Source: Methanosarcinaceae archaeon
GTDB taxonomy: Archaea; Halobacteriota; Methanosarcinia; Methanosarcinales; Methanosarcinaceae
Direction of reading: 5' to 3'
Assembly (NCBI GenBank): GCA_016932675.1
Contig: JAFGCK010000110.1
Span: forward strand, 1-40,990
Length of the DNA: 40,990 nt
Below are positions 9,093 to 28,966 of the stretch, one piece after another. The notes under the pieces were generated by a model, which searched no databases, was not told where the DNA came from, and worked only from the letters and a program-made list of their open reading frames with translations. Both the position numbers and the translations under genes were made by a program. Position 1 is the stretch's first letter, and each line of letters begins with the position of its first letter.

Positions 9093-9178
9093 TGGTGCGG
9101 GAGAAGGGATTCGAACCCCCGAACGCCTGCGCGAGCAGATCTTGAGTCTGCCACCGTTGACCGCTTGGTTACTCCCGC
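9093..9178 (-). tRNA. tRNA-Leu (anticodon CAA)
   Basis: The minus strand folds as a class II tRNA. The acceptor stem GCGGGAG pairs with CTCCCGC, discriminator A73 is followed by an encoded CCA (9093-9095), and the T arm carries GGTTCGAATCC. The anticodon stem GCAGA/TCTGC encloses loop CTCAAGA, so the anticodon is CAA, reading UUG leucine codons. The long variable arm and A73 fit leucine rather than serine. I see no intron. A TATA-like TTTATAATAAATA on the minus strand (about 9209-9222) lies about 37 bp upstream and is the likely promoter. Confidence 0.95.
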
Positions 9179-26487: not shown

Positions 26488-27864
26488 TCAGGTCTCTGTC
26501 CCGGATGCTTCATCATCCCCTGCTTCATCGTCTGAAGCGTCATCATCTGCTTCATTGTCTGAAGCATCATCATCTGCTTCATTGTCTGAAGCATCATCAT
26601 CTGCTTCATTGTCTGAAGTATCATCATCTGCTTCATCGTCCTCATCATCATCTTGATCAGGTGTTGCCCATGCTTTCTCTTCAACACCATTTACGATGTA
26701 GGTCCCATCTCCGGAAAGCATTGCTGTTCCCTTTCCTTCAACCACAAGGTCCATATCAGTGCCCCGCAGCATTATTGTAAGGCGGGTGCCATTGATTGTC
26801 ACGTTGCCTGTGAGGTCGTGGTAGACAAATGCCCTGTTGTTGTCATCGCTGTTGCCCGAGTCCACATTTGAGGAATCGTAGCTTGCATCACTGGTGCTTA
26901 TAGAAGCATCTCCGGCCATATCCTTGATCACAAGCATTGCATCGGTTGCATTGAAGTCCAGGCTGAAGTTACCGGAAATGACTGCGGTTCCATTCCCGTC
27001 AGCTTCCAGTGTGCCTTCCCCGGTGAGTACTACAAGCCCCTCGCGGTGCTGCTTGAGTGCCTGAAGCATTTTCTTGAGGACATCATTTGCATCTTTGATG
27101 CTCTGGCCTGCCTGGTTCATATTGCCGGTGATGTCATCATTCCCATTACCGTTTGCGTATGCATTCCTGGCCTGTTCCTGATATTGTTTTGCTTCATTGA
27201 TATGTGCATTATAATCATCAAGCATCGCCTGGAGCCCGGTCACATCCTCTCCGTTCTCATCCAGACGGTCGATCTCATTCTGAAGGCGGAGTGCCATGTT
27301 CTCGGATGTCTTTATGACCGCGTTAAGCTTATTGTTGACTGCCCTGGCTGATGTGACCACTTTATCCTTGCGCGCATCATTCCAGATAGCCCTTATATCC
27401 CTGGCCGATCCAGCGAGCTCATTTCTTGTGCTTGCTGCGGCGATTTCATCCTTTTCAGCTATCAGCGCCGCGATATAGTCCTTATCATCAAGGTCCTTAT
27501 CATCAAGGTTTTTGATCATCCAGTCAATAGTGCTGTTAAGGTACTCTTTAGTGGCGTTAATGGCTTCCTCTGAGTCAAGGTCCTTGTTCCTGGCCTTTAT
27601 ATCCTGGAAGTCTTTCTTTGCCTGTGCATACCGGGCCTGCAGATTCTGTTCTGTTTTTATCTTATTCATCTCTGCAGCACGTGGCGCGTTCTCATCTGCA
27701 TTTGCTCTTGCCCTGTCGCGTTGCTGTATCTCTGCGCCGGAAGCACCGTCGTCATCCTCTTCTAATCCCTCATCAGAGTCTGCGAACGCCACTGCCGGGA
27801 TCACACTGGCCAGCATCAGCACAATAGCAATGTATGCAAATATCCTGATTCCTGATCTTGTCAT
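26488..27864 (-). CDS. Secreted coiled-coil protein with acidic repeat tail
   Basis: This 458-residue protein (ATG 27864, GAGGG 7 nt upstream) starts with a signal peptide (MTRSGIRIFAYIAIVLMLASVIPAVAFA) and then an acidic segment. Roughly residues 55-280 are Ala/Lys/Glu/Gln-rich helices that look like a coiled coil, with a small internal repeat NLDDKDLDDKDY. A beta-rich region follows, with several N-x-S/T sites and GTLEADGNGTAVISGNFSLDFNATDAMLVIKD, resembling other methanogen surface proteins. The tail is four copies of a nine-residue EADDDASDN-type repeat and has no hydrophobic anchor. Family unknown; likely an extracellular, possibly metal-binding or envelope-associated protein. Confidence 0.8.
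   Translation of the reverse strand: MTRSGIRIFAYIAIVLMLASVIPAVAFADSDEGLEEDDDGASGAEIQQRDRARANADENAPRAAEMNKIKTEQNLQARYAQAKKDFQDIKARNKDLDSEEAINATKEYLNSTIDWMIKNLDDKDLDDKDYIAALIAEKDEIAAASTRNELAGSARDIRAIWNDARKDKVVTSARAVNNKLNAVIKTSENMALRLQNEIDRLDENGEDVTGLQAMLDDYNAHINEAKQYQEQARNAYANGNGNDDITGNMNQAGQSIKDANDVLKKMLQALKQHREGLVVLTGEGTLEADGNGTAVISGNFSLDFNATDAMLVIKDMAGDASISTSDASYDSSNVDSGNSDDNNRAFVYHDLTGNVTINGTRLTIMLRGTDMDLVVEGKGTAMLSGDGTYIVNGVEEKAWATPDQDDDEDDEADDDTSDNEADDDASDNEADDDASDNEADDDASDDEAGDDEASGTET
26521..26640. repeat. 27-bp tandem repeat encoding an acidic nonapeptide
   Basis: Four full units begin at 26521, 26548, 26575 and 26602, plus a partial fifth at 26629; the second and third are identical and the others differ by one or two bases. 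They keep the coding frame and specify EADDDASDN on the minus strand. This is recent slippage-type expansion in the C-terminus of the secreted protein, not CRISPR. Confidence 0.9.
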
Positions 27865-27941
27865 ATATTGTCCCTCTAGTTCCTGTTTTTGATCATGTGT
27901 GTTTAAAGTTCTGTTCATTCATAGTGAATTTTCGTTTTTCC

Positions 27942-27981
27942 GCATATACAGTTCCGGAAGTTCCCGGGTAACTGTATATGC
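27942..27981. promoter_or_regulatory. Perfect 12-bp inverted repeat in the divergent promoter region
   Basis: GCATATACAGTT (27942-27953) and AACTGTATATGC (27970-27981) are exact inverse complements around a 16-bp GC-rich spacer that itself contains TTCCGGAA. Each arm contains TATA-like bases; the left arm read on the minus strand (CTGTATATGC) is well placed as TATA for the secreted protein gene. The site thus looks like an operator overlapping that promoter. Confidence 0.6.
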
Positions 27982-28102
27982 AATTCCGAGATTATCAGGT
28001 GAGTATATAAGCATTCTTTACTTTATGCAACTCTTGAATACTTCATTTATTGATTTAAAACCTTTTAATAGTTTATTTTGCTTGATAATACTTTACAAGA
28101 CC

Positions 28103-28111: not shown

Positions 28112-28132
28112 CTATAAGAAACTATTATATGC

Positions 28133-28966
28133 ATGAACCAGATAAATATAGGTTCTGTGCCAACACAAAAAAAGCGATATCTGTTGTTCTTATTGCTTGC
28201 ATTTGCGCTCATGCCGCTTGCTGAAGCTGATAGCATGGCAACCATCCATGGTGCCATCTATGAATGGGACACGTTCGAACCCCTGGAGAATGTCATAGTC
28301 GAGGTGAATTCGACCCCTCCCCAGTCAATGCTTGCCCGCTATGGTATATATTCCTTTAACCTGGCGCCCGGAAATTACCTTATATCTGCCAGTTACTATC
28401 GCAATTCCACGCTGGTGCATCACACAGAGGAAGAGATCATAATAACAGACGATGGTGACTATGTGATAGATATCATTTTCCTCCCTACATATTATGAAGA
28501 AGGGGGAACGGATGGGACGGAGTTTGAGGAACTGGATGAACTTGCAGGACTTGCGGAAAGTGAGCCTTCTTCCGGAGATGAGCTGTTCCCCCCTGTCTTT
28601 ATCTATGTGCTTGCGTTCCTTATCATGGTGTTCGCAGGAGTATATCTTTTTTCCCGGCGTCATAAAGGAGAAAAAGAAGCTGGCCTCCGGGCTCATGACC
28701 CATATTCTGAAGAATATACGGAACACTTCCTTTCCGATGAACATGCCGACCTTCCTGCCGACCTTCAGGAAGTTGTGAATATAATTGCAAAAAACGGTGG
28801 ACGTATTACCCAGAAAGATCTGAGAAGCAGGCTGAAGCATTCCGAAGCAAAGGTCAGCCTTATGATCTCGGACCTTGAGAACCGTGGTCTTGTCCGGAAA
28901 TTTAAAAAAGGTCGTGGCAATGTTATCATCCTTAACGGGCCAGAAAAAGCAAACCAAAATGTATAA
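28133..28966 (+). CDS. Membrane-anchored winged-helix regulator with extracellular domain
   Basis: This 277-residue two-pass protein has a hydrophobic segment at about residues 15-33, then an extracellular region to about 150 with a carboxypeptidase-regulatory-like beta sandwich (IHGAIYEWDTFEPLENVIVEVN, YSFNLAPGNYLISASY) and an acidic linker. A second membrane segment (about 155-178, FIYVLAFLIMVFAGVYLF) ends in a positive RRHKGEK stop. The cytoplasmic part ends in a winged helix (DLQEVVNIIAKNGGRITQKDLRSRL, with wing GRGNVIILNG). This layout matches the COG2512-type membrane-associated archaeal regulators. It probably senses an extracellular cue and acts on DNA from the membrane. It is divergent from the acidic secreted protein, across the inverted repeat. 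Confidence 0.83.
   Translation: MNQINIGSVPTQKKRYLLFLLLAFALMPLAEADSMATIHGAIYEWDTFEPLENVIVEVNSTPPQSMLARYGIYSFNLAPGNYLISASYYRNSTLVHHTEEEIIITDDGDYVIDIIFLPTYYEEGGTDGTEFEELDELAGLAESEPSSGDELFPPVFIYVLAFLIMVFAGVYLFSRRHKGEKEAGLRAHDPYSEEYTEHFLSDEHADLPADLQEVVNIIAKNGGRITQKDLRSRLKHSEAKVSLMISDLENRGLVRKFKKGRGNVIILNGPEKANQNV

What the first reader, a model, noticed from the sequence alone, without database searches (positions are those of the whole stretch)
27942..27981. Perfect 12-bp inverted repeat between an acidic secreted protein and a membrane HTH protein
The arms are exact over 12 bases with a 16-bp spacer, and the left arm overlaps the probable TATA of the secreted protein gene. A site this good between divergent genes, one of which encodes a DNA-binding protein, strongly suggests local regulation.
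Basis: partly seen in the sequence, partly recalled or inferred. Interest (0 to 1): 0.55.

Follow-up and report, generated by a model that had tools for sequence, protein, structure and literature searches.

The report
Hairpin starting an archaeal mRNA leader
The inverted repeat is real, but it is best read as an RNA hairpin at the very start of a messenger RNA in a methane-making archaeon, kept across related species by matching changes in both arms, rather than as a binding site for the neighbouring DNA-binding protein.

Summary
The perfect 12-bp inverted repeat is present at 27942-27981 and is unlikely by chance (0.027 expected per window). The TATA box of the secreted-protein gene is at 28005-28010, so the inferred transcription start (27981-27983) coincides with the outer end of the repeat. 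The repeat is then the first 40 nt of the mRNA and folds into a near-continuous stem (-21.9 kcal/mol, z -7.3).

The promoter is conserved in 22 of 27 genomes of the genus, inferred to be Methanolobus. The exact repeat is not conserved, but most leaders pair their first ~15 nt with a downstream segment at very variable spacing. Each 5' end pairs with its own leader far better than with other species' leaders (-16.9 vs -11.2 kcal/mol; 0 of 20,000 permutations). A control arm just upstream shows nothing. Leaders found by promoter alone obey this in 5 of 7 cases. That pattern fits RNA structure, not a dimer operator.

Most likely function, inferred and untested: a 5'-terminal stem-loop protecting the mRNA of a cell-surface protein from 5'-end-dependent decay. 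Blocks near both TATA boxes are better candidates for the membrane wHTH protein. Against: 8 of 32 genus leaders fail the test, and standard consensus folding failed.

The parts
27942..27981 (-). 5'-terminal stem-loop of the secreted-protein mRNA leader (the reported inverted repeat, 12-bp arms plus inner CCGGG/UCCGG pairs)
   Evidence: position relative to TATA
27865..27983 (-). inferred 119-nt 5' leader (transcription start inferred at 27981-27983, not measured)
   Evidence: fixed 21-nt spacing from TTATAT to TTGCA; TATA-to-start spacing of 19-22 nt in M. psychrophilus from a passage of PMC5378194
28005..28024 (-). conserved BRE/TATA promoter element AAAGTAAAGAATGCTTATAT (block A)
   Evidence: only hit in own genome with up to 3 mismatches; 22 of 27 genus genomes
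27870..27877 (-). likely ribosome-binding site (AGAGGGAC), outside the hairpin
   Evidence: read; unpaired in the fold
26488..27864 (-). acidic secreted protein, 458 aa; no Pfam hit over cut-off, no NCBIfam hit, no solved relative
   Evidence: model mean pLDDT 62 with no PDB fold match at E<=0.001
28157..28966 (+). membrane wHTH protein (DUF7343 domain), with probable true start GTG 28157 rather than ATG 28133
   Evidence: DUF7343 9.7e-18; conserved GTG in 23 of 24 loci; upstream in-frame ATG in only 5 of those 23
28076..28095 (.). conserved intergenic block B (TTTTGCTTGATAATACTTTA), candidate regulator site
28116..28132 (+). conserved block C, probable BRE/TATA of the wHTH gene
   Evidence: about 26 nt upstream of GTG 28157

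Best explanation
The inverted repeat encodes a stem-loop that begins at, or within about 2 nt of, the 5' end of the mRNA for the acidic secreted protein. RNA polymerase starts at 27981-27983 (inferred from the TATA box). As soon as about 40 nt are made, the 5' end folds back on itself. The stem hides the 5' end, while the ribosome-binding site 64 nt further on stays single-stranded. The likely job is to shield the message from 5'-end-dependent decay such as the 5'-3' exonuclease aRNase J, giving steady, high expression of a cell-surface protein. Supported computationally: the repeat, its place relative to a conserved promoter, and co-variation of the two arms across the genus. Inferred: the exact start site, folding in the cell, and protection from decay.
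For: Fold of the 40 nt: -21.9 kcal/mol, z -7.3. Whole leader: z -4.6. The promoter plus TTGCA at fixed 21-nt spacing is found in 22 of 27 genus genomes (28 sites; 0 with the reversed pattern). Pairing of the first 18 nt with the rest of the leader is within the best 5 of 100 shuffles in 19 of 24 leaders and 5 of 7 leaders found by promoter only. Two more examined later both missed. Own versus swapped partners: -16.9 vs -11.2 kcal/mol, z -9.5 (31 leaders); z -8.6 with one per similarity cluster (21); control arm z -0.3. The stem starts in the first 3 nt in 26 of 31. Among 61 TATA-like sites of the window, 4 (this one included) pass the same test at 2 of 40, and this one has the most stable pairing. 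An RNase J family gene scores 468.8 bits against a cut-off of 400 in this genome. 5'-3' exonuclease activity is reported for Methanolobus psychrophilus aRNase J (passage of PMC10470531). 5' hairpins stabilise bacterial mRNAs (passages of PMC3997798).
Against: No transcript, start site or half-life was measured. M. psychrophilus aRNase J is reported to unwind RNA, so a stem need not stop it. RNAalifold on MAFFT alignments found 0 pairs for 10 leaders and 8 pairs in a poor register for 6; I attribute this to 3' arms that sequence alignment cannot put in register. The G-U versus A-C asymmetry that would prove action on the RNA strand is inconclusive (26:17 against about 19:19 in shuffles). 8 of 32 genus leaders fail the shuffle test (L012, L015, L017, L018, L058, L061, L027, L065). 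Related leaders are not independent.
Confidence: 0.6

Rival explanations
1. The leader hairpin is a regulated RNA switch or a protein- or small-RNA-binding element, for example sensing temperature, salt or a ligand, rather than a passive 5' shield.
For: Structure is kept while sequence and loop length vary. In 12 of 31 leaders the loop carries ACYACCAA, a possible recognition motif. Temperature-dependent 5' leaders are reported in M. psychrophilus (passages of PMC5378194).
Against: The window's own leader lacks the loop motif. The ribosome-binding site is 64 nt away and unpaired. No Rfam family matches there (the only hit in the window is a tRNA). The pairing that competes with the terminal stem in the L013-type leaders is not kept in all of them.
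Confidence: 0.22
2. The repeat is a DNA operator for the divergent wHTH protein or another dimeric regulator, blocking transcription at the start site.
For: The perfect repeat lies over the inferred start site, between divergent genes, one encoding a wHTH protein. In several relatives the first 12 nt are themselves nearly palindromic (e.g. TTGCAGGTGCAA).
Against: The repeat is not conserved, spacing varies widely, the half-site has no genome-wide excess, and the hairpin is absent in the sister-genus locus that keeps promoter and gene pair (L026). Conserved blocks A and B lie elsewhere.
Confidence: 0.13
3. The hairpin is the start of a separate small RNA or a processed leader RNA acting elsewhere.
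For: Many small RNAs are reported in M. psychrophilus (195, abstract passage of PMC5378194). The element is compact and stable.
Against: Nothing here shows a separate transcript. The loops, where targets would pair, vary most.
Confidence: 0.03
4. Chance inverted repeat without function.
For: One such repeat somewhere in a window is expected in about 2% of random windows.
Against: Orthologous leaders in other species form stems at the same place.
Confidence: 0.02

Closest known systems
5'-terminal mRNA stem-loops of bacteria (E. coli ompA leader; 5' hairpins of Bacillus mRNAs)
   Same: Stem at or very near the 5' end, upstream of an accessible ribosome-binding site; here too ahead of a surface-protein gene (the ompA parallel is recalled; the general statement is from passages of PMC3997798)
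   Different: Archaeal; stem length and loop vary greatly between species; protection not shown
5' leaders that stabilise methanol-pathway mRNAs in Methanosarcina mazei zm-15 (Cao et al. 2014)
   Same: Same archaeal family (recalled); long 5' leader linked to mRNA stability
   Different: Other genes; the paper is not held, and its content is known here only from a reference and one sentence in PMC4762005 and from recall
Divergent operator and autoregulator pairs (wHTH regulators of the MarR/TrmB type)
   Same: Divergent gene pair with a wHTH protein
   Different: The repeat is neither sequence-conserved nor fixed in spacing, and it lies downstream of the TATA box of one gene only

Membership tests
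5'-terminal protective mRNA stem-loop | Stem begins within a few nt of the transcription start | tested here: met
   Start inferred, not mapped: TATA spacing; stem start in first 3 nt in 26 of 31 leaders
5'-terminal protective mRNA stem-loop | Ribosome-binding site outside the stem | tested here: met
   Window leader only: 27870-27877 unpaired
5'-terminal protective mRNA stem-loop | Structure maintained by selection | tested here: met
   Swap test with control arm; shuffles. Misses: 8 of 32 genus leaders; RNAalifold on MAFFT alignments failed
5'-terminal protective mRNA stem-loop | Longer mRNA half-life because of the stem | not testable with these tools
   Needs half-life measurements
DNA operator of the wHTH protein | Conserved sequence and spacing of half-sites at orthologous promoters | tested here: not met
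   the exact repeat was found in the window genome only, and spacing differs between relatives
DNA operator of the wHTH protein | Binding by the wHTH domain | not testable with these tools
   Needs EMSA or footprinting
Known RNA family (riboswitch or other) in Rfam 15 | Match over gathering score | tested here: not met
   only one tRNA (9096-9178) in the window
Intrinsic terminator | Hairpin followed by a run of T, at the end of a gene | tested here: not met
   Read: between two divergent starts, with no T run after either arm

The most novel reading that the evidence does not exclude
A genus-specific family of archaeal leader RNAs, always starting at +1 behind one dedicated promoter motif, controls a small set of acidic and calcium-repeat-like surface proteins. 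The terminal stem is a co-evolving scaffold and the loop (ACYACCAA in one branch) is read by an unknown protein or RNA, so that surface-protein output is set by mRNA lifetime.
Probability: 0.18. Interest if true: 0.6.

Novelty: new member of a known kind. Interest (0 to 1): 0.4.

Why it matters
What sets mRNA lifetime in archaea is poorly understood, and clear, evolutionarily supported 5'-end elements are scarce in the papers I could search. This locus offers a compact case: one promoter motif, one leader stem starting at +1, many related species with naturally compensated arms, and a genus in which both transcription starts (PMC5378194) and the 5'-3' exonuclease aRNase J (cited in PMC10470531) have been studied. 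It also corrects a tempting operator reading.

Tried and rejected
Operator reading: half-site search in the genome gave no excess; exact repeats at orthologous sites were absent; spacing varied.

Consensus folding with standard tools failed (0 pairs; 8 pairs, two with both sides changed, in a poor register), so I relied on swapping arms between species, which needs no alignment.

Strand asymmetry (G-U versus A-C mismatches) as proof of RNA-level action: inconclusive.

A competing hairpin in the L013-type leaders (first bases with an inner UCAACCGCAAA): seen in L013, L014, L020 and L024 but degraded in L016 and L022 and lacking in L054 (read by eye), so not pursued.

Rfam gave only a tRNA. What the acidic protein is: no Pfam hit over cut-off, no NCBIfam or PDB sequence match; the model is poor (mean pLDDT 62, helical bundle plus beta region) and matched no PDB fold at E<=0.001. 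Papers on DUF7343: none held.

Rows dropped before counts: 24 of the 30 orthologue loci L002-L031 gave a leader by the promoter motif. L019 and L027-L031 did not; L027 was added later by hand, and the same genome as L019 gave L044. L065 was fetched for genome G020. G018 was not examined further. The 31-leader tests include sister-genus L026 and exclude L027 and L065. Leaders L009, L010 and L017 were cut at 110 nt because no start codon was located, and L058 and L059 were also cut.

Full report
WHAT IS THERE. The inverted repeat is exact as described: arms 27942-27953 and 27970-27981, 16-nt spacer. It is the only repeat of its class in the window, against 0.027 expected in Markov copies, and the full repeat is unique in the assembly. 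The spacer pairs too, so either strand can form a stem of about 17 pairs with a 2-nt bulge, near -22 kcal/mol, better than all 200 shuffles.

WHERE IT REALLY LIES. The secreted-protein gene runs on the minus strand from ATG 27864. The conserved promoter element AAAGTAAAGAATGCTTATAT lies at 28005-28024 on that strand, and no other site in the genome matches the consensus within 3 mismatches. From the end of TTATAT, 21 nt lead to TTGCA at 27983-27979. A dRNA-seq study of Methanolobus psychrophilus places BRE/TATA about 19-22 nt from the start in 81.6% of primary transcripts (passage of PMC5378194). The start is therefore inferred at 27981-27983, and the repeat forms the first 40 nt of the message. 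The ribosome-binding site (27870-27877) is 64 nt beyond the stem and unpaired in the predicted fold.

RELATIVES. The wHTH protein is found in 56 of 60 related genomes. The promoter and TTGCA at fixed spacing, up to 3 mismatches, occur in 22 of 27 genus genomes, 28 sites in all, with no hit for the reversed pattern. They lie upstream of secreted acidic proteins, either the 400-aa kind of the window or a smaller kind of about 100-120 aa with DEDGDGICDN-like repeats.

THE TEST. The exact repeat is not conserved. What is conserved is that the first bases of the leader pair with a later segment. Using the first 18 nt as one arm, the pairing energy falls within the best 5 of 100 shuffles in 19 of 24 leaders from the orthologous locus (misses L012, L015, L017, L018, L026) and in 5 of 7 further leaders found through the promoter alone (misses L058, L061). 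Two leaders with degenerate promoters examined later both missed (L027 13 of 100; L065 18 of 100). In all, 24 of 33 pass, or 24 of 32 within the genus. In a background check on 61 TATA-like sites of the window, 4 passed at 2 of 40, this site included, and this site had the most stable pairing.

CO-VARIATION. If the pairing were a by-product of composition, the 5' arm of one species would pair equally well with another's leader. It does not: own -16.87, swapped -11.18 kcal/mol, none of 20,000 permutations as low (31 leaders). One leader per similarity cluster (21) gives z -8.6; without the window (20), z -8.0; the seven promoter-only leaders alone, z -4.6. An 18-nt control arm between TATA and start gives z -0.3. 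Stems begin in the first 3 nt in 26 of 31, and several 5'-arm positions show three or four different Watson-Crick pairs across species (that per-position table leaves out L015, L026, L058 and L061). The distance between arms runs from a few nt to about 90 nt, which suits an RNA hairpin and does not suit a dimer operator.

RESULTS AGAINST. RNAalifold on MAFFT alignments did not recover the stem. The strand-asymmetry test was inconclusive. A quarter of genus leaders fail. Sister-genus L026 keeps promoter and gene pair but has a 33-nt leader without a hairpin, so this looks like a genus-level feature. The permutation test does not model the tree, although the flat control arm argues against an artefact of relatedness.

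THE wHTH PROTEIN. It has an N-terminal signal-like segment, a weak carboxypeptidase-regulatory-like region, one probable transmembrane segment (read from the sequence) and a DUF7343 winged helix (9.7e-18). Its conserved start is GTG 28157: the GTG was located in 23 of 24 loci and only 5 of those 23 have an upstream in-frame ATG. Phylogenetic footprinting shows three conserved blocks: A at the secreted-protein BRE/TATA, B at 28076-28095 and C at the wHTH TATA. A and B share TACTT repeats and are the better candidates for regulator binding; this is inference.

MECHANISM. I commit to a 5'-terminal stem-loop that protects the message. The ingredients exist: an RNase J family gene in this genome, 5'-3' exonuclease activity reported for M. 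psychrophilus aRNase J (passage of PMC10470531), and bacterial precedent for 5' hairpins stabilising long downstream regions (passages of PMC3997798). The same passage says the Methanolobus enzyme can unwind RNA, so protection is not assured. A stabilising 5' leader in M. mazei (Cao et al. 2014) is cited second-hand (the paper itself was not held).

NOVELTY. No Rfam family matches. My searches of held papers for Methanolobus with UTR and stem-loop, archaeal mRNA stability with stem-loop, RNase J and leader hairpins and terminal hairpins listed no description of this element. I read listings and abstract openings, plus passages in five papers (PMC5378194, PMC4762005, PMC6705878, PMC10470531, PMC3997798), not whole texts. 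It is a new member of a known kind.

Noticed in passing
window 28133-28157: The wHTH gene probably starts at GTG 28157 rather than at ATG 28133; the GTG is conserved in 23 of 24 loci and follows a TATA box so closely that the mRNA may be nearly leaderless.
   Followed up: yes
window 28076-28095 and 28005-28024: Two conserved blocks with repeated TACTT (5 bp apart in block A, 10 bp apart in block B) beside the two promoters, also present in sister-genus locus L026; possible wHTH binding sites.
   Followed up: partly
leaders in L013, L014, L016, L018, L020, L021, L022, L024, L037, L054, L057, L059: Loop motif ACYACCAA in 12 of 31 leaders, ahead of the small secreted-protein genes; not in the window leader.
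   Followed up: partly
window 26511-26640: Tandem 27-bp repeats (4.8 copies, 93% matches) encoding the acidic C-terminus of the secreted protein.
   Followed up: no
genomes G004, G011, G017, G022 (two sites each) and G024 (three sites): More than one copy of the promoter, usually 2-3 kb apart (in G011 on two contigs, in G024 one copy about 23 kb away), suggesting tandem duplication of the leader-plus-secreted-protein unit.
   Followed up: partly
window 26488-27864: The secreted protein is modelled as a helical bundle followed by a long beta region; low confidence (mean pLDDT 62) and no PDB fold match at E<=0.001.
   Followed up: partly
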